Source: a virus. From it: a DNA stretch of 64,000 nt. Under the pieces are notes generated by a model. The model was not told where the DNA came from, did not search any database, and saw only the letters and a program-made list of their open reading frames with translations. Each line of letters starts with the position of its first letter. Positions within the stretch are counted from its first letter, which is position 1. Shown in pieces: positions 3,408 to 49,534 of the stretch. The stretch covers positions 1 through 64,000 of IMG/VR virus record IMGVR_UViG_3300037011_000606; one strand, written 5' to 3'. The position numbers and the translations under genes are program-made.

Positions 3408-3575
3408 ATGGATAAGGAAATACTTGTAGAGTTTGAGAGAGATACCAAGAGGATGTATAGGTACAAGACACCAGCGGCCGACGGGGATCGTCAGCAGACG
3501 TTCTACTTCCCAAAGGAATGGTTTGGCAACACGCCCCCGAAGAGTCTGACCATTGTGGTAAAGATACCTGAGTGA
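3408..3575 (+). CDS. Small basic hypothetical protein, 55 aa
   Basis: ATG at 3408 follows GAGGAGG. The product has many charged residues and ends in two short strands (SLTIVVKIPE). It overlaps the GTG start of the next regulator by four bases. Codon use is relatively GC-rich in the second half. Function unknown. Confidence 0.55.
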   Translation: MDKEILVEFERDTKRMYRYKTPAADGDRQQTFYFPKEWFGNTPPKSLTIVVKIPE

Positions 3576-4060
3576 TCACTTTGGTCTTGGATATAAAGGA
3601 TTTTGAGAGTGGAGCCCAGGCTATCTCAACGAGAGGAGATGGGCACAATCAACGGAGAATATTGGAGATGCTAAGAAGTACTCCGCTGGTTGCTTATTCA
3701 CAAGGGGAAATACAAGAGGAGTTGGAAATTAAGTTCCCTAGCGCTGTGAATTCTGCACTACACTCTCTGCAATCTAAAGGATGTGTTGACGTTAAGATTG
3801 TCAATGGGATTCAATACTGGAGGTTCGTCCATGATATACCGCAAGCATCAATTTCAAACAGTGAAGCCACCAAGATGCCGGAAGTTACTCGAGGGGATAG
3901 AAGTGGCGAGGACTATAGTCCGCCACCATCAGATGATAGAAAAAGGTCCCCTAATGAGAATGGTAAGGGAAAGGTTGAGGGTGGAAATGTGGGAAGCGAA
4001 CAGAATAATAAACGCCGCGGTGGAAACAGGAAGAATCTCAAAGGTAAAGATGGCGAATGA
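3572..4060 (+). CDS. Winged-helix regulator with low-complexity tail, 162 aa
   Basis: It starts at GTG overlapping the previous stop. The N-terminus has LDIKDFESG, a variant of the FEAKG motif of the 441 and 5803 proteins. A winged helix follows at about residues 27-90 (YSQGEIQEELEIKFPSAV, then a wing ending in QYWRFV). From about residue 118 the frame turns into Lys/Gly/Asn-rich low complexity, while an overlapping frame encodes a good second winged helix (3933-4205). A one-base change in the A5 run at about 3939-3944 would fuse the two. Confidence 0.6.
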   Translation: MITLVLDIKDFESGAQAISTRGDGHNQRRILEMLRSTPLVAYSQGEIQEELEIKFPSAVNSALHSLQSKGCVDVKIVNGIQYWRFVHDIPQASISNSEATKMPEVTRGDRSGEDYSPPPSDDRKRSPNENGKGKVEGGNVGSEQNNKRRGGNRKNLKGKDGE

Positions 4061-5802: not shown

Positions 5803-6111
5803 ATGTGTCCGATAGACGTAAAAACGTTTGAGGCAAAGGGGGAGACCCCTTCGGGTAGGAAGGCAGGACAGACTCGACCGCAGATAGAGAAGTTCTTGTA
5901 CGATAACAAGAACCAGGCTTTCACGACCAGGGAGATCGCGGAGAAGGTCGGCGGAGTCAAGGCAACCGTCAACCACACCGTGAGGAAGCTCACTGAGTCT
6001 GGCAAGGTCGAGAGGAAGGAAGTCGATGGGCTGATATACAACCGCTGGGTGTCCGGCGAGCCCAACCTCACCCCCGATGACGAGGATGAGGAAGTCGACG
6101 ACGAGAAGTAG
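5803..6111 (+). CDS. Winged-helix DNA-binding protein with acidic tail, 102 aa
   Basis: It is a paralogue of the 441 protein. The N-terminus has VKTFEAKGE. The winged helix (about 25-88) contains FTTREIAEKVGGVKATVNHT, then KLTESGKVERKEVDG and YNRWVSG. The last 14 residues are nearly all Asp/Glu. Codon use is strongly GC-ending, as in 441 and the capsid gene, suggesting high expression. Its own promoter and a hairpin terminator flank it, so it is monocistronic. Confidence 0.75.
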   Translation: MCPIDVKTFEAKGETPSGRKAGQTRPQIEKFLYDNKNQAFTTREIAEKVGGVKATVNHTVRKLTESGKVERKEVDGLIYNRWVSGEPNLTPDDEDEEVDDEK

Positions 6112-6136: not shown

Positions 6137-6153
6137 GTGGGAAGCATTCCCAC
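6137..6153 (+). terminator. Hairpin terminator after the 5803 gene
   Basis: GTGGGAA and TTCCCAC form a perfect 7-bp stem with a GCA loop, 26 nt after the stop codon. The following bases include a short A/T run (aaaattt). It separates the regulator gene from the tRNA-like pair. Confidence 0.5.
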
Positions 6154-6169: not shown

Positions 6170-6304
6170 GTGTATTGTGGTGTAATGGTGCACACTCTCT
6201 CGGTAAATGGCTCCCAACCCCTCGTCCGATGGTCGCTTAATTCTTCCAAGCGCTCGTCTCCCAACCGATAGGAGAGAGGTGAGGTTCAAGTCCTCCAATA
6301 CGCA
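6170..6304 (+). tRNA. Intron-containing tRNA-like gene; possible Thr(GGT)
   Basis: Acceptor strands GTGTATT (6170-6176) and AATACGC (6297-6303) pair with one G-T. The TTCAAGT loop (6285-6291) is flanked by GAGG/CCTC. An anticodon stem CTCTC/GAGAG (6195-6199, 6272-6276) encloses a bulge-helix-bulge: TCGG (6200-6203) with CCGA (6265-6268) and bulges TAA and TAG. Removing 6206-6270 (65 nt) gives loop TCGGTAG, anticodon GGT, with the intron at the usual 37/38 site. Odd points: C instead of T at position 33, an extra base between acceptor and D stem, and a four-pair T stem. It may be a divergent tRNA or a mimic. Confidence 0.55.
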
Positions 6305-6308
6305 TTAT

Positions 6309-6447
6309 GGGCCGATAGCTCAGCCAGGTAGAGCGCGAGTACAAGTCATCCGACGGGATGACAAACCGTTGCTCGAGGTCGTGGATGGCAGGGTTCGCAG
6401 GACGCTGTGAGAAATGCCATTAGTGGGTTCAAATCCCACTCGGCCCA
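6309..6447 (+). tRNA. tRNA-like gene with two apparent insertions; anticodon unresolved
   Basis: GGGCCGA (6309-6315) pairs perfectly with TCGGCCC (6440-6446), with A next. The D arm is GCTC/GAGC (6318-6321, 6331-6334). The T arm is GTGGG/CCCAC around TTCAAAT. Between D and T arms lie 88 bases, far too many. They contain CGAG/CTCG (6336-6339, 6372-6375) followed by AGGTC, a hairpin GTCATCC-GACG-GGATGAC (6345-6362), and a second hairpin TTCGCAG-GACG-CTGTGAG (6394-6411) inside ATGGCA/TGCCAT. GTGG is repeated at 6381 and 6423, framing a possible 42-nt insertion at the T arm. No reading gave a loop with T33, so the isotype is left open. Confidence 0.5.
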
Positions 6448-6466: not shown

Positions 6467-6892
6467 ATGAAAACCGACCCAAATTTTCCGAAATGTGCAG
6501 GATGTATAAGATCGAGTCACAATGCACACTGTGCTTGGGCGATTACAGGTAAGTGTGTAGATGGGAGTGAGTTTATGGTGAAAAATGGTATGCAAGAGAT
6601 GAGTTATGAGGAAAAGAGAAAGTATGTTGAATTGGCTGTGGCTATTGAACTCGCTAACCATTATGAGTTTGTGGCACAAAGTTATTTAGAGAAGGCTATG
6701 AGATTGAAGACAGAGTTTTGGAACTTGGTTAGAATGGGTCATAAGGTTACTACTCCGACGAGAATGGTAGTAAGTGAAGATATGCAGAGTGTGAAGCTAG
6801 AGAAGGCTGAGATTGTTAGGACGGAACTTTTGCCAAGAGTACCTAGAGAAGAGGATGGAAGTGTCAGGGATAAGGCTAGGGTGAAGAAATGA
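6467..6892 (+). CDS. Cys-rich N-terminus plus helical domain, 141 aa
   Basis: The N-terminal 30 residues hold CAGC, C and C with His (HNAHC), a likely metal site. The rest is predicted helical (EMSYEEKRKYVELAVAIE) with a charged tail. It follows the tRNA-like pair directly behind AAGGTG and overlaps the next gene by four bases. No family recognised. Confidence 0.6.
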   Translation: MKTDPNFPKCAGCIRSSHNAHCAWAITGKCVDGSEFMVKNGMQEMSYEEKRKYVELAVAIELANHYEFVAQSYLEKAMRLKTEFWNLVRMGHKVTTPTRMVVSEDMQSVKLEKAEIVRTELLPRVPREEDGSVRDKARVKK

Positions 6893-7599: not shown

Positions 7600-7943
7600 G
7601 ATTATCTCATATGTGTAAGAGGATGAAGGATGCCATAGATAATGGTAGTATTACCGTAAGGCACGACGACATCGATGAGAAGGGATTGGTACCCATAGTA
7701 CAGATACATTCTGCCGAGGCTAATCAGAAGGATAAGTTAATATACTTTTGTCCTTGGTGCGGAGTGTCGCTAGGTAATTGGTTGAAAGGCGATGATAAAT
7801 GTATAATAACCGATGTGACTGATGCTTTAGAACGTGCCGATGACTTAGCAATAGATAGAATGCATGAGGATGACGATAGTTCTTCTGATGATGATCTGCC
7901 AAATGAAGATGATGATGAGCATTTTGATAATGGGGAGGATTAG
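7587..7943 (+). CDS. CPWCG zinc-binding protein with acidic tail, 118 aa
   Basis: A CPWCG knuckle near residue 55 follows a strand-rich half (KGLVPIVQIHSAE). The last 30 residues are nearly all Asp/Glu/Ser. Acidic tails recur in this virus's regulators. No second CxxC is present, so metal binding may need a partner or a dimer. Confidence 0.55.
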   Translation: MSDVRLSHMCKRMKDAIDNGSITVRHDDIDEKGLVPIVQIHSAEANQKDKLIYFCPWCGVSLGNWLKGDDKCIITDVTDALERADDLAIDRMHEDDDSSSDDDLPNEDDDEHFDNGED

Positions 7944-8312
7944 ATGCAGAAGTGTCCCATTTGTAAGGGGGAGATAATTCTCTTCTTCGAGAGGGGTTTG
8001 GATGTTGATACCTTCAAAGTGGGAGTATCGGAGAAGGATGATAGTGAGGTTAATTCGTTGATTAAGGCTCTATTTTCTTATATCAACTGGTTGAATAATG
8101 GGAAGAAACCTTATGGTCCTGGCAAAGATGAACAGATGTATCATGACCAGTATCATAATGATATTGATCATGTGCAGGGTGTCCATTATACGTTTAATAT
8201 AAGGGTGTATGATTCGCCATCATTGGATATTTGGTGGAAGGGAGAGTTCAACTTAAATGGAGCAACGATTGAGATCACCGTGAGCGGATATAAGAGAGTG
8301 TCGAGCTCATGA
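7944..8312 (+). CDS. CxxC-start hypothetical protein, 122 aa
   Basis: The N-terminus is MQKCPICKGE, half of a zinc knuckle. The rest is a mixed fold with a Tyr/His-rich centre (MYHDQYHNDIDHVQGVHYTF) and C-terminal strands. It starts one base after the previous stop. No known family recognised. Confidence 0.55.
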   Translation: MQKCPICKGEIILFFERGLDVDTFKVGVSEKDDSEVNSLIKALFSYINWLNNGKKPYGPGKDEQMYHDQYHNDIDHVQGVHYTFNIRVYDSPSLDIWWKGEFNLNGATIEITVSGYKRVSSS

Positions 8313-9270: not shown

Positions 9271-10518
9271 ATGTCATATCCAGAACCGATACAATTCGAA
9301 TCTCAGGAAAATCTCTATAAGCAAGCGAAGTTCTTCTATGATGAGTATGAGAAGGAGAAGAAAAGGAATGCTGAGATGGTTATACAGAATAAGAATGATA
9401 GGTGTTTATTGGTCAATGAGCTCGCCGATCTTAAGAAGAAGTTCATAGAACAGCATAATACTCTAAAAGTGGAATCAGAAAGAGAAAGGCAGGAGTTAGA
9501 GACGAAGATTGCTGCCGTGGAGCACGCGTGTAATTGCTTCAAAACGGATTTGCGACAAACGGAGCAGGATGCTCGAGAGCGCATCGCCGAGCTTGAAGAT
9601 GCTAAAAGGGTTGCTGAACAGGAGAGAAGAGAATGGGATAACCAGCAGCGTGTAATTCTCAAGTTGAAAGAGTATATTATGAGGGAGCACAACTGTTATA
9701 TGGCTAGTATAAACAATCCCAGCCAATGTCTAAGTTGTAATCATCAAACATGTCCACTAGCTGTTGTTTATAAGCCCTCTGGTGACGAGAAAGGCAGCGA
9801 TTTGCAGTCAGCTGTGCCTAACGAGGGTGGCGTTGAACACCCTTCACCTGCCCTCGAAACATCAAAGGAGCCCTCTGATGACGGGAAATTGGGTGCGAAT
9901 AGTACGCAGGGAGAACCTGCGGCAGTTGCTTCCTCGGAGTCTAGTGTAAGCTCTGAGGTTCAGACCTCATTAAACACCCACCTGAAATCATCAGAGGGTA
10001 AGTATGGGACGGTTTATGGATTAACGCCGATGAACCACAAAGTAGAAAAGATGTATGTGTGTAGAAGTGCGAAGCTCTGCCCTAATATAGAATGCCATCA
10101 CTACACAGAACATCCGCAAAATGAGTTGTGTAAGGAAGTGTGTGGTCAATGTGGTAGTAGTGTAAAGTGTATAAAAGTTAAATATTGTACCTGTGAATCA
10201 TCTCCACCGGGAGTTTTGCTTAGAGATGGCACTTGTGGAGGTTGCGGAGGGATTGTTAATCAGCCAGAGAGTCTACACAACGTCTGTAGGCATTGTGGTA
10301 GTGTCATAATGCCAGTTGTGAAGAAGACTTATAATAACGCTTGTAAATGTGTTATTGTATATACGAATAGTGCAGAAGATTCTCGCTTGAGTAGTTTAGA
10401 GAAAAAGGGAAAGGAGTTTGCTCTCCCATTCATAAAAGATTTGTTCGAGGATGGGAGGGATTGGATACCTGACGCTGATTGTAAGTTTTGTAATGGTACA
10501 GGATTTGTGGAGAAGTAG
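9271..10518 (+). CDS. Coiled-coil protein with multi-knuckle zinc C-terminus, 415 aa
   Basis: This is the longest early gene. Residues 10-140 form a coiled coil rich in Glu/Lys/Arg. A CLSCNHQTC site follows near 158. Residues 170-245 are Ser/Pro/Glu-rich and disordered. The C-terminal 150 residues carry at least six CxxC or CxxxC knuckles (CGQCG, CGGCG, CRHCG, CKFCNG). A multi-domain scaffold that binds several partners fits, but no enzyme signature is seen. The Pro/Ser linker resembles the tail of the 13351 protein. Confidence 0.65.
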   Translation: MSYPEPIQFESQENLYKQAKFFYDEYEKEKKRNAEMVIQNKNDRCLLVNELADLKKKFIEQHNTLKVESERERQELETKIAAVEHACNCFKTDLRQTEQDARERIAELEDAKRVAEQERREWDNQQRVILKLKEYIMREHNCYMASINNPSQCLSCNHQTCPLAVVYKPSGDEKGSDLQSAVPNEGGVEHPSPALETSKEPSDDGKLGANSTQGEPAAVASSESSVSSEVQTSLNTHLKSSEGKYGTVYGLTPMNHKVEKMYVCRSAKLCPNIECHHYTEHPQNELCKEVCGQCGSSVKCIKVKYCTCESSPPGVLLRDGTCGGCGGIVNQPESLHNVCRHCGSVIMPVVKKTYNNACKCVIVYTNSAEDSRLSSLEKKGKEFALPFIKDLFEDGRDWIPDADCKFCNGTGFVEK

Positions 10519-10645: not shown

Positions 10646-11136
10646 ATGATGAACTAAAGGCCTTTCTTAGGAAGGTTAATCAAGCGGATATATCTATTAG
10701 GCCCTGTATGTTTGTACAACATTTCAATATGCAGAGATTAGATGACCATACAAGAATGTTCATGACTACTAGTAATGTGGTTATACCTGGTGAGTCTACC
10801 TATGAGTGTACGAAGTGTGGGTATTGCTGCTCGAATGAACATATTAAATTGCCCAAAGAATTTGTAAGAGATGATGGTAAAGGGTGTAAGCACCTAGTAA
10901 ATAATCTATGTAGTATAGATGATGCTAAAAGCCATATATGTAAACAATTTCCTTTCAGGGTGTTGAAATTTCGAACTAAGGATAGCGTACTGAAGTTGTT
11001 ATGTATAAGTGTACATTGTAGAGGGCAGGTTATTGGTGGTCCGATCATTGATGACATAAACTATGAGAAATTGTTAGAGATATGCTCAAGAGCTCCTGAA
11101 GATATAGTACAGACGAGGAATTTCAATGAAGTGTAG
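10642..11136 (+). CDS. YkgJ/UPF0153-type metal-chelating protein, 164 aa
   Basis: CTKCGYCCSN at about residues 54-63, followed by a C near 80, a C near 88 in NNLCSI and CKQFPFRV at about 98, matches the CxxCxxCC...C...C..FPF pattern of the YkgJ-like putative zinc/iron-chelating family. The N-terminal 50 residues are extra and mixed in structure. The function of the family is not established; a redox or metal-transfer role is possible. Confidence 0.65.
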   Translation: MNDELKAFLRKVNQADISIRPCMFVQHFNMQRLDDHTRMFMTTSNVVIPGESTYECTKCGYCCSNEHIKLPKEFVRDDGKGCKHLVNNLCSIDDAKSHICKQFPFRVLKFRTKDSVLKLLCISVHCRGQVIGGPIIDDINYEKLLEICSRAPEDIVQTRNFNEV

Positions 11137-28494: not shown

Positions 28495-28893
28495 ATGAAG
28501 TTAAGCTGGCTCGATGTACAACAGTCAATAGATAGACTAACCAAGTACTTGGAGCTAAGACACGCCAGTGAATCTCTACATAAGCATACTATCCTTGGAG
28601 TAGTAAGAGGGGGTTTGATCCCCGCGGTAATGTTATCGCATAGACTAACCGATACCTTCTTCGATACTATAATCGTGGAAGATCATAATGAGCTTAAGGG
28701 TAGGTATATAGTTGTAGATGATATATGTGATACTGGGAAGACGTTCCGATCTCTTAAGAGAAGGTTGCCGAATGAGGATAATATATTTTGTTGCTTGGTG
28801 TATAAACAGCATAGTAAGTTTGTACCAGACTTTTCTGGTATTGTGACTAATTCAAAGGAATGGGTTGTATTTCCGTGGGAGGAAGATAAATGA
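28495..28893 (+). CDS. Purine-type phosphoribosyltransferase, 132 aa
   Basis: GVVRGGLIPAVMLSHRL and the PRPP-binding motif YIVVDDICDTGKTF identify a type I PRTase of the Gpt/Hpt kind. It lies between queE and folE2 with no gaps. It might salvage guanine or xanthine to feed GTP, or act on a deazapurine base; the second is speculative. Confidence 0.8.
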   Translation: MKLSWLDVQQSIDRLTKYLELRHASESLHKHTILGVVRGGLIPAVMLSHRLTDTFFDTIIVEDHNELKGRYIVVDDICDTGKTFRSLKRRLPNEDNIFCCLVYKQHSKFVPDFSGIVTNSKEWVVFPWEEDK

Positions 28894-29699
28894 ACACGCC
28901 AGATGTACAGAGTAGAGAGGATAAGAGAGAATTAAATATTGATATGGTGGGTGTAAAGGGAGTCGAGTGGCCGATTAAGCTGAAAGATAAAACTTTAGGG
29001 ATTCAGTATACCTCGGGCAAGTTCAACATGTATGTGAGTTTGCCCAAGTCGCAGAAAGGTACTCATATGAGTAGGTTTGTGGAGGCCTTAGCCAAATTCA
29101 CGAAGGAGGAGAGTTTCTTTTCGATGGATGTTATGGTCGATGAGATCGCTCCGTATATAAGAGAGTTGCTGGAGTCTTTGACTGTTTATCTGGAATGTGA
29201 ATTTACGTATTTTATCAATGTAACATCTCCAGAGACGTTAATAGGAAGCAAGCTACCCATTCGATGTTGCTTCGTTACGGAAGGGAGCAAAGATCACTCG
29301 AGAAAGGTAGTTGAGGTCAAGGTCCCGGTAAATACTCTATGTCCCTGCTCTCAAGAGATGAGTGAGAATCCACATAATCAAAGAGGGATTGTGACGATAC
29401 AAGCGGATGTTAACGCTTTCGTCTGGATAGAGGAACTTGTAGAGATTGCACAGAGAGCTGGCTCATGCGAAATATATCCACTTCTCAAGCGACCCGATGA
29501 AAAGTGGGTGATGGATAAGTCAGCTACGAGGCCAAGGTTTGTAGAAGATGTGGTAAGAGAAGCCTCTCTAGAGCTAATCAAAGATAAAAGGATCGATATT
29601 TTTAACGTTGAATGTGAGAATATGGAGAGTATACATCCGCATAGCGCATTTGCAAGTATTGAATGGCGGAGGTTTATGCATGAGGGAAAAGAACAGTAG
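28890..29699 (+). CDS. folE2: GTP cyclohydrolase IB (FolE2/MptA-type), 269 aa
   Basis: Family pattern: PDVQSREDKRELNIDMVGVKG at the start, KGTHMSRF, VPVNTLCPCSQEMSENPHNQRG with the catalytic Cys, and RPDEKWVMDKSATRPRFVED near the end. It makes the first pathway intermediate from GTP. FolE2 versus MptA cannot be decided by eye; with QueD present, dihydroneopterin triphosphate as product is expected. It overlaps the uracil glycosylase gene by 20 bases. Confidence 0.88.
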   Translation: MNTPDVQSREDKRELNIDMVGVKGVEWPIKLKDKTLGIQYTSGKFNMYVSLPKSQKGTHMSRFVEALAKFTKEESFFSMDVMVDEIAPYIRELLESLTVYLECEFTYFINVTSPETLIGSKLPIRCCFVTEGSKDHSRKVVEVKVPVNTLCPCSQEMSENPHNQRGIVTIQADVNAFVWIEELVEIAQRAGSCEIYPLLKRPDEKWVMDKSATRPRFVEDVVREASLELIKDKRIDIFNVECENMESIHPHSAFASIEWRRFMHEGKEQ

Positions 29700-48673: not shown

Positions 48674-48707
48674 AAAATAAAAAATAAGAGGACTAGTGAG
48701 TCCCCTT
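48674..48707 (-). terminator. Hairpin plus T-run after the major capsid gene
   Basis: On the minus strand, AAGGGGACT pairs with AGTCCTCTT (one G-T) around a 4-nt loop, directly after the capsid stop codon, followed by ATTTTTTATTTT. It mirrors the terminator after the tube gene. Confidence 0.8.
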
Positions 48708-49524
48708 ACGTCAGCAGTCCAGTCAATTCCCTGCCCGCAGCTGAAACTCCCAGCAGCGGCTGCTGGAACTTCGCGACGGCATAGCCCTTGTTGAACTTGG
48801 CTCCACCATCGTACTGGCTCACTATGGTCGGCCCATCCGCGAGCGTAACGAAAGACGCCTTCCTATCTCCGATGATTGCCGTTGCGGCAACCAACGCTGC
48901 ATCTCTCATTATCTCGAGATCGCCAATCATAGTTATGGCACCCGGCAGCACAGTCCTTCCTTCAGGATACGCGCCCCTCACATATGTGTTCGCAAGGAAG
49001 CTCGCATATACCGAGGACTGCATGCATATGACATCAGGCGAGTAACCAAGCTCTTCGAGCGTAGCCACCACCGGCATGATATCATCCATCGGGTTCGTGG
49101 CCGAAGCCTTCCAATTGCCGCCAGACACATCGATCAGTCCAACGAGTACCTCTCCTATCTGCTTGTTCTCCATCCTAGCGAGATCCCTGGCACCATCAGA
49201 TACCTGAACCTGCATCAGATTAAACTTCGACTTGAGCGAAGCCTCATCCGACATGACTATGTGGATGACATTCTTCCAGCACTCGAAGTCCAGATCAGTG
49301 AAAGCAGCTGCATTGATTGCCCCTTCCACATTCTCAGGCACCTTCTCCTGACCAGCCATTACAGTCCCAATCGGGATGTGTGCTATGATCTCATTACCAA
49401 GGTCAAAGACCCGGCAGAGCTTCCTCAGGTTGTACTGTGGCCTGGCCAATCCCAAGATCTCCTCTACGAAGACCTGGGCCTTCATCGCATCCGTAACATT
49501 ATCCTTAATAATTATACCAGCCAT
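48706..49524 (-). CDS. Major capsid protein, HK97 fold, 272 aa
   Basis: GAGGTG upstream fixes ATG 49524; an upstream GTG is less likely. The fold follows HK97 patterns: a short N-arm (IIIKDNVTDAMKAQVF), the E-loop/P-domain region with AAFTDLDFECWKNVIHIVMS, a spine-helix region (MQVQVSDGARDLARMENKQI) and the A-domain with LEELGYSPDVICMQSSVYA. No long delta domain is fused, since a separate scaffold gene precedes it. GC-ending codon bias and its own terminator mark it as the most abundant virion protein. Confidence 0.85.
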   Translation of the reverse strand: MAGIIIKDNVTDAMKAQVFVEEILGLARPQYNLRKLCRVFDLGNEIIAHIPIGTVMAGQEKVPENVEGAINAAAFTDLDFECWKNVIHIVMSDEASLKSKFNLMQVQVSDGARDLARMENKQIGEVLVGLIDVSGGNWKASATNPMDDIMPVVATLEELGYSPDVICMQSSVYASFLANTYVRGAYPEGRTVLPGAITMIGDLEIMRDAALVAATAIIGDRKASFVTLADGPTIVSQYDGGAKFNKGYAVAKFQQPLLGVSAAGRELTGLLT

Positions 49525-49534
49525 GTGTATCACC

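What the first reader, a model, noticed from the sequence alone, without database searches (positions are those of the whole stretch)
6170..6447. Two adjacent tRNA-like genes with 60-65 nt internal insertions and odd anticodon loops
Both have good acceptor and T-arm pairing but are about 135-139 bp. The first has a recognisable bulge-helix-bulge and would splice to a GGT anticodon, yet with C at position 33 and an 8+4 acceptor/T-arm layout. The second seems to carry two insertions, each holding a 7-bp hairpin with the same GACG loop, and no reading yields a normal anticodon loop. Intron-bearing viral tRNAs are unusual; these may be intron-dependent tRNAs, splicing-endonuclease decoys, or tRNA mimics.
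Basis: partly seen in the sequence, partly recalled or inferred. Interest (0 to 1): 0.65.

Follow-up and report, generated by a model that had tools for sequence, protein, structure and literature searches.

The report
Archaeal virus tRNA genes with inserts
A virus that most likely infects Bathyarchaeia, a group of sediment archaea, carries two back-to-back tRNA-like genes: one holds an intron of the kind archaea cut out of their own tRNAs, and the other holds two very stable hairpins at places where host tRNAs have introns but without the cutting signal, so it may stay uncut.

Summary
Window 6170-6304 and 6309-6447 are two tandem tRNA-like genes, the only ones in the 95-kb virus genome. All nine MCP relatives found in cellular genomes lie in Bathyarchaeota MAGs, so the host is very probably archaeal. 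Such hosts have the splicing endonuclease and many intron-bearing tRNAs.

[quoted passage not shown] 10 of 5000 intron shuffles did as well. The mature body is odd: 8/4 acceptor/T layout, no U33. It reads Thr(GGU)+C33, or Tyr-like(GUA)+G33 in the other register.

tRNA2 has an intact tRNA body (Rfam 41.2 bits) plus two GACG-capped hairpin inserts, in the anticodon arm (about 23 nt) and variable region (42 nt). Host tRNA-Lys genes carry introns at the same sites. tRNA2's inserts form no usable BHB, although the same procedure solved 10 of 12 control genes; they fold far better than chance (z = -5.1).

BHB-intron tRNAs in archaeal viruses are not new: HGTV-1 has one annotated, and a relative of this virus carries a textbook tRNA-Pro. 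The unsettled part is tRNA2, possibly a non-spliceable tRNA mimic.

The parts
6170..6304 (+). tRNA1: intron-bearing tRNA-like gene; 8-bp acceptor (6170-6177/6296-6303), D stem 6180-6183/6190-6193, anticodon stem 6195-6199/6272-6276, T arm 6281-6295, discriminator A6304, no encoded CCA
   Evidence: sequence; ARAGORN with introns; 1 false hit per 60 shuffled genomes; mature forms
6206..6270 (+). tRNA1 intron, register A (65 nt; loop UCGGUAG, anticodon GGU, C33); register B is 6207-6269 (63 nt; loop CGGUAAA). BHB: h1 CTCTC(T)/(G)GAGAG, core TCGG/CCGA or CGGT/ACCG, 3-nt bulges, h2 TGG/CCA
   Evidence: 10/5000 shuffles; core pair probability 0.12-0.16, above four spliceable controls at 0-0.03
6309..6447 (+). 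tRNA2: tRNA-like gene; 7-bp acceptor GGGCCGA/TCGGCCC (6309-6315/6440-6446), D arm 6318-6334, T arm GTGGG-TTCAAAT-CCCAC 6423-6439, A73
   Evidence: Rfam tRNA 41.2 bits; ends match host tRNAs at 90-100%; fold z -5.12
6336..6375 (+). tRNA2 anticodon-arm region (40 nt where 17 are normal): CGAG(T)/(G)CTCG stem with the hairpin GTCATCC-GACG-GGATGAC (6345-6362) inserted
   Evidence: (hairpin z -3.04; no BHB solution)
6381..6422 (+). tRNA2 variable-region/T-stem insert (42 nt, ends ambiguous by up to 4 nt because of the GTGG repeat): GATGGCA/TGCCATT, 3x3 loop GGG/AAA, hairpin TTCGCAG-GACG-CTGTGAG (6394-6411)
   Evidence: (z -4.84, 0/200 shuffles); removing it restores AGGTC-GTGGG as in host tRNAs (L176)
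48706..49533 (-). Probable major capsid protein (identified by position and conservation; inference), used to infer the host
   Evidence: (9/9 cellular relatives in Bathyarchaeota MAGs)
5803..6111 (+). Upstream gene (winged-helix-like), same strand, 58 nt before tRNA1; co-transcription inferred
   Evidence: (TrmB-like domain, below cut-off)
6467..6892 (+). Downstream gene of unknown function, same strand, 19 nt after tRNA2

Best explanation
The pair belongs to a tailed virus of Bathyarchaeia and is probably read from one operon transcript (inferred). tRNA1 is an intron-bearing tRNA gene: host splicing endonuclease would cut its BHB at about position 37/38, ligase would join the halves, and a small tRNA with an 8/4 acceptor/T layout, most likely anticodon GGU, would result. 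tRNA2 is a host-tRNA-derived RNA with the same two-insert layout as host tRNA-Lys(UUU), but its inserts are rigid hairpins without a BHB. The most likely outcome is that it is not spliced and stays a tRNA-shaped RNA with two extra arms, acting as a mimic or decoy rather than in decoding. Shown: sequence features, host link by capsid relatives, BHB in tRNA1, no BHB in tRNA2, stable folding of tRNA2. Inferred: transcription, actual splicing, and function.
For: Host: 9/9 cellular MCP relatives are Bathyarchaeota; PF01974 endonuclease in 7/7 such genomes, two copies in four of them. tRNA1 BHB; 10/5000 shuffles; its core pairs are likelier in the fold ensemble than in four spliceable controls. Compared with host Thr(GGT) L137 the core pair at position 33 changes from T-A to C-G, which keeps the helix. 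Viral relative G013 has a BHB tRNA-Pro. tRNA2 layout: host L195 tRNA-Lys(UUU) has introns at 37/38 and in the variable region, and host tRNA-Lys(CUU) genes of 130-145 nt carry two to three introns. tRNA2 fold z -5.12, 0/200 shuffles. The BHB solver gave a proper mature tRNA for 10 of 12 control genes, while tRNA2 is no better than shuffles (106/200 reach its score).
Against: No register of tRNA1 gives U33, and A21 is missing, so it may not decode. The solver score of tRNA1 by itself is reached by 116/1500 intron shuffles; only the strict BHB criterion is rare. No direct homologue of either gene was found, so there is no covariation test. Host assignment rests on 34-40% identity of one capsid protein. 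The solver also missed two host genes (L171, three introns, two of them found by hand; L182), so a relaxed motif in tRNA2 cannot be excluded. No expression data.
Confidence: 0.6

Rival explanations
1. Both are ordinary translation tRNAs with archaeal introns. tRNA2 is also spliced, by a broad-specificity two-subunit endonuclease that accepts relaxed motifs, and the anticodon loops have merely drifted (C33) to escape anticodon-loop nucleases.
For: Host has two PF01974 copies in several genomes and multi-intron tRNAs at the same sites. Phage tRNAs with altered anticodon loops that evade host nucleases are described (PMC10264068, abstract).
Against: No splice of tRNA2 tested, BHB-based or simple excision, gives U33 with a purine at 37; its solver score is shuffle-level.
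Confidence: 0.25
2. Decaying tRNA pseudogenes picked up from a host, with chance inserts.
For: No U33 in any reading; A21 missing in tRNA1; no close relatives found.
Against: All acceptor, D and T stems are intact in both; tRNA2 folds far better than chance with two matching 7-bp GACG hairpins; tRNA1 keeps a strict BHB.
Confidence: 0.12
3. They belong to the structured tRNA inserts of bacterial phages (the 'enigmatic introns' of Lak phages and similar inserts in IMG/VR phages).
For: Same gene length and insert site; many phage tRNA-like genes have 30-60-nt inserts without BHB.
Against: A model built from the shared phage insert motif does not match the window (best forward-strand hit 2.1 bits); the host is archaeal; tRNA1 has a BHB.
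Confidence: 0.03

Closest known systems
Halovirus HGTV-1 tRNA-Ala(TGC) + intron (NC_021328, 49226-49328)
   Same: Archaeal tailed virus tRNA with a BHB intron at 37/38 (31 nt; h1 CTTGC/GCAAG, core TTTG/CAAA)
   Different: Normal 7/5 body and normal anticodon loop; short intron; member of a set of more than 30 tRNAs
tRNA-Pro(UGG) of related virus IMGVR_UViG_3300028920_000005 (L155, complement 232-364)
   Same: Virus with related capsid protein (42%); BHB intron of similar length (59 nt) at 37/38; missed by Rfam, found by ARAGORN
   Different: Canonical mature tRNA (loop TTTGGGA, 7/5 layout)
Bathyarchaeia tRNA-Lys(UUU) and tRNA-Lys(CUU) with one to three introns (L195, L183, L180, L181, L188)
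   Same: Same size class; introns in anticodon arm and variable region, the two insert sites of tRNA2; 5' end 93-96% like tRNA2
   Different: Most introns form BHB motifs that restore a normal anticodon loop; tRNA2 inserts do not
Lak megaphage tRNA introns (PMC6784885)
   Same: Viral tRNA genes with short inserts and no known removal route
   Different: Bacterial host; the window does not match a model of similar phage inserts
8/4 allo-tRNAs (reviewed in PMC7609411)
   Same: 12-bp acceptor/T branch split 8+4, as in tRNA1
   Different: Bacterial, serine-type; tRNA1 has a 4-nt variable loop and an archaeal intron

Membership tests
Archaeal BHB intron-bearing tRNA (tRNA1) | 4-bp core helix flanked by two 3-nt bulges, exon and intron helices | tested here: met
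   (10/5000 shuffles)
Archaeal BHB intron-bearing tRNA (tRNA1) | Excision yields cloverleaf with 7-nt loop, U33 and purine 37 | tested here: not met
   C33 (register A) or G33 (register B); purine 37 is met
Archaeal BHB intron-bearing tRNA (tRNA1) | Host has splicing endonuclease | tested here: met
   PF01974 in 7/7 Bathyarchaeia genomes; none in the virus
Archaeal BHB intron-bearing tRNA (tRNA2) | BHB at each insert that yields a proper tRNA | tested here: not met
   (score 24, reached by 106/200 shuffles; 10 of 12 controls solved at 27-28)
tRNA (Rfam RF00005), tRNA2 | Covariance model score above cut-off | tested here: met
   41.2 bits vs 29 in a small stretch; not reported by the whole-window and whole-record runs with fast filters
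tRNA (Rfam RF00005), tRNA1 | Covariance model score above cut-off | tested here: not met
   15.2 bits, partial; the well-formed viral tRNA-Pro also fails, so this test is weak for intron-bearing genes
Phage tRNA-insert class (model R1) | Shared insert motif NCGYTTTTTCCC-hairpin-GGTGACG | tested here: not met
8/4 allo-tRNA | 8+4 acceptor/T branch | tested here: met
   for tRNA1
8/4 allo-tRNA | Serine identity elements | not tested
   tRNA1 has a 4-nt variable loop (sequence); the other elements were not compared
Splicing-endonuclease decoy or tRNA mimic | Binds or titrates a tRNA-handling enzyme without decoding | not testable with these tools
   needs binding and cleavage assays

The most novel reading that the evidence does not exclude
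tRNA2 is an intron-locked tRNA mimic: a viral RNA that keeps a complete acceptor/D/T body and places two rigid GACG hairpins at the sites where host tRNAs carry introns, so that host tRNA-processing or defence enzymes bind it but cannot turn it into a decoding tRNA. tRNA1 beside it keeps a BHB while losing U33.
Probability: 0.25. Interest if true: 0.7.

Novelty: new variant of a known kind. Interest (0 to 1): 0.45.

Why it matters
Archaeal viruses were known to carry at least one BHB-intron tRNA (HGTV-1). This adds a probable Bathyarchaeia virus pair in which one gene keeps the splicing signal but has an abnormal mature form, and the other keeps the tRNA body while the splicing signal is absent. 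If tRNA2 is really not spliced, it would be a natural tRNA-shaped RNA made by a virus for something other than decoding, testable with one purified endonuclease.

Tried and rejected
Exact-pattern scans for tRNA2 in IMG/VR and GTDB genomes: nothing. blastn against phage records: nothing. Neighbour protein 5803-6108 and DNA polymerase as baits in viral contigs: no relatives. Sister fragments found by tail sheath (63% identity) cover only the late region plus a few nucleotide-metabolism genes such as FolE2, and hold no tRNA. Splicing endonuclease in the virus: none. Further tRNAs in the remaining 31 kb: none. The tRNA of relative G012 (L157 c4079-4155) is intronless. ARAGORN's own readings, Ile(GAT) for tRNA1 and Ala(GGC) for tRNA2, were rejected because they ignore the BHB or distort the arms. 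Reading tRNA2 as a three-exon Arg(CCG) or a Met(CAT) was considered by hand and dropped: it needs a 7-nt intron or an unpaired stem, and no BHB supports it. A mirror-image bulge order in tRNA2 insert 1 was noted; both strands have the bulge before the helix, the reverse of a BHB. The absence of the BHB from the MFE of tRNA1 was considered as evidence against, but four spliceable controls show lower BHB probabilities. Large mixed alignments A2 and A3 were made only to scan many proteins at once.

Full report
What is there. The window is 64 kb of a 95,097-bp linear virus record. Its genes include a family B DNA polymerase whose best full-length match is that of haloarchaeal virus HGTV-1 (23% identity), a tail sheath, tape measure protein, portal, ribonucleotide reductase and a 7-deazaguanine set (FolE2, QueC, a QueD-like PTPS, a radical SAM protein). 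At 6170-6304 and 6309-6447 lie two tRNA-like genes, four bases apart, on the same strand as the genes 58 nt upstream and 19 nt downstream. With introns allowed, ARAGORN finds these two and no others in the whole genome; in 60 shuffled genomes it found one hit in all.

Host. The probable capsid protein at 48706-49533 has 34-40% identical relatives in nine cellular genomes, and all nine are Candidatus Bathyarchaeota. The one hit in the phage collection is a Methanomicrobiales virus. The host is therefore very probably a bathyarchaeon, where BHB splicing is expected; seven of seven such genomes carry the endonuclease family PF01974, four of them twice. The virus has none.

tRNA1. The strict motif (6-bp outer helix with a closing G-U, 4-bp core CGGT/ACCG, two 3-nt bulges, 3-bp inner helix) defines a 63-nt intron. 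Shuffling the intron while keeping the exons reproduces a motif of this quality in 10 of 5000 trials. A neighbouring register with core TCGG/CCGA, the one that corresponds to the host tRNA-Thr(GGT) intron L137 (TTGG/CCAA), gives a 65-nt intron and a normal 5-bp stem with loop UCGGUAG, that is, anticodon GGU with C33. The two are equal in predicted energy and cannot be told apart here. Relative to the host gene, the core pair at position 33 is C-G in place of T-A, so the helix is kept while U33 is lost (a comparison of two sequences, not a test). The mature body has an 8-bp acceptor and a 4-bp T stem; that reading also puts T at position 8, A at 14 and an A15-U48 pair in place (from the sequence).

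tRNA2. Rfam's tRNA model matches it end to end with 41.2 bits. Its first 26-28 bases and its last 25-30 match Bathyarchaeia tRNAs at 90-100%, while the inserts match nothing. Removing 42 bases (6381-6422) restores AGGTC-GTGGG as in host tRNAs, so an insert at that point is clear even though its exact ends are ambiguous. The anticodon arm holds about 23 extra bases. Both inserts contain a 7-bp stem closed by GACG and followed by AAA. The whole RNA folds 20 kcal/mol better than shuffles (z -5.12, 0/200), and the inserts score z -3.0 and -4.8 on their own.

Host parallels. Bathyarchaeia tRNA-Lys(CUU) genes of 130-145 nt carry two or three introns (L180, L181, L183), and L195 tRNA-Lys(UUU) has exactly two, at 37/38 and in the variable region, the layout of tRNA2. 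A recursive search that removes only BHB introns turned 10 of 12 control genes (eleven host genes and the viral tRNA-Pro) into proper tRNAs with U33 and a purine at 37. It missed host L171, where two of three introns were then found by hand, and L182. For tRNA2 the best product scores 24, without U33, and 106 of 200 shuffles do as well. The inserts of tRNA2 are thus at intron sites but are not BHB introns by this test.

Viral parallels. The related virus G013 carries a tRNA-Pro(UGG) with a textbook BHB intron; Rfam misses it, so a failed Rfam match says little about tRNA1. HGTV-1 has an annotated tRNA-Ala + intron with a canonical BHB. A scan of IMG/VR for tRNAs with long inserts returned 64 loci; about half are two adjacent tRNAs and more than 20 are single tRNA-like genes with inserts, mostly without BHB. 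A model of the motif shared by several of them does not match the window. Lak megaphage tRNA introns are a published case (PMC6784885).

Mechanism. For tRNA1, host splicing at the BHB is the best-supported step; whether the product decodes is doubtful because U33 is absent. For tRNA2, the simplest reading of a conserved tRNA body, strong folding and no splicing signal is a tRNA-shaped RNA that is processed at its ends but not spliced. A decoy or mimic role is inference. The main rival is that both are real, divergent decoding tRNAs, with tRNA2 cut through a relaxed motif.

Limits. No orthologue of either gene was found, so neither covariation nor conservation could be tested; no transcript data were available; the host call rests on one protein family.

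Noticed in passing
L017 complement 7954-8087 and 7647-7785; L020 complement 10760-10893 and 10362-10499; L019, L050, L073, L044: tRNA-like genes of phages (large phages, several samples) carry 40-60-nt anticodon-arm inserts that share a motif (NCGYTTTTTCCC-hairpin-GGTGACG...TTACTT) across different tRNA bodies, have no BHB and no Rfam match other than tRNA. They may be a small intron class like the Lak phage introns.
   Followed up: partly
L016 complement 3467-3606; L026 4413-4533: Phage tRNA-like genes with a normal-looking anticodon arm but about 60 nt with two extra hairpins in the variable region.
   Followed up: no
L155 complement 232-364 (IMGVR_UViG_3300028920_000005): Related virus with a BHB-intron tRNA-Pro(UGG), 59-nt intron, missed by the Rfam tRNA model.
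   Followed up: yes
L168, L180, L181, L182, L183, L185, L195: Bathyarchaeia tRNA-Lys genes with two to three introns at 30/31, 37/38 and the variable region.
   Followed up: partly
window 28890-29699 and neighbouring genes: 7-deazaguanine pathway genes (FolE2, QueC, PTPS/QueD-like, radical SAM) in the virus, suggesting modified DNA. tRNA2 has G15, the archaeosine site; tRNA1 has A15.
   Followed up: no
L004 1428-8285 (minus), genome position about 65.4-72.3 kb: A giant open reading frame of about 2285 codons.
   Followed up: no
window 6137-6153: Perfect 7-bp hairpin GTGGGAA-GCA-TTCCCAC just upstream of tRNA1; role unknown.
   Followed up: no
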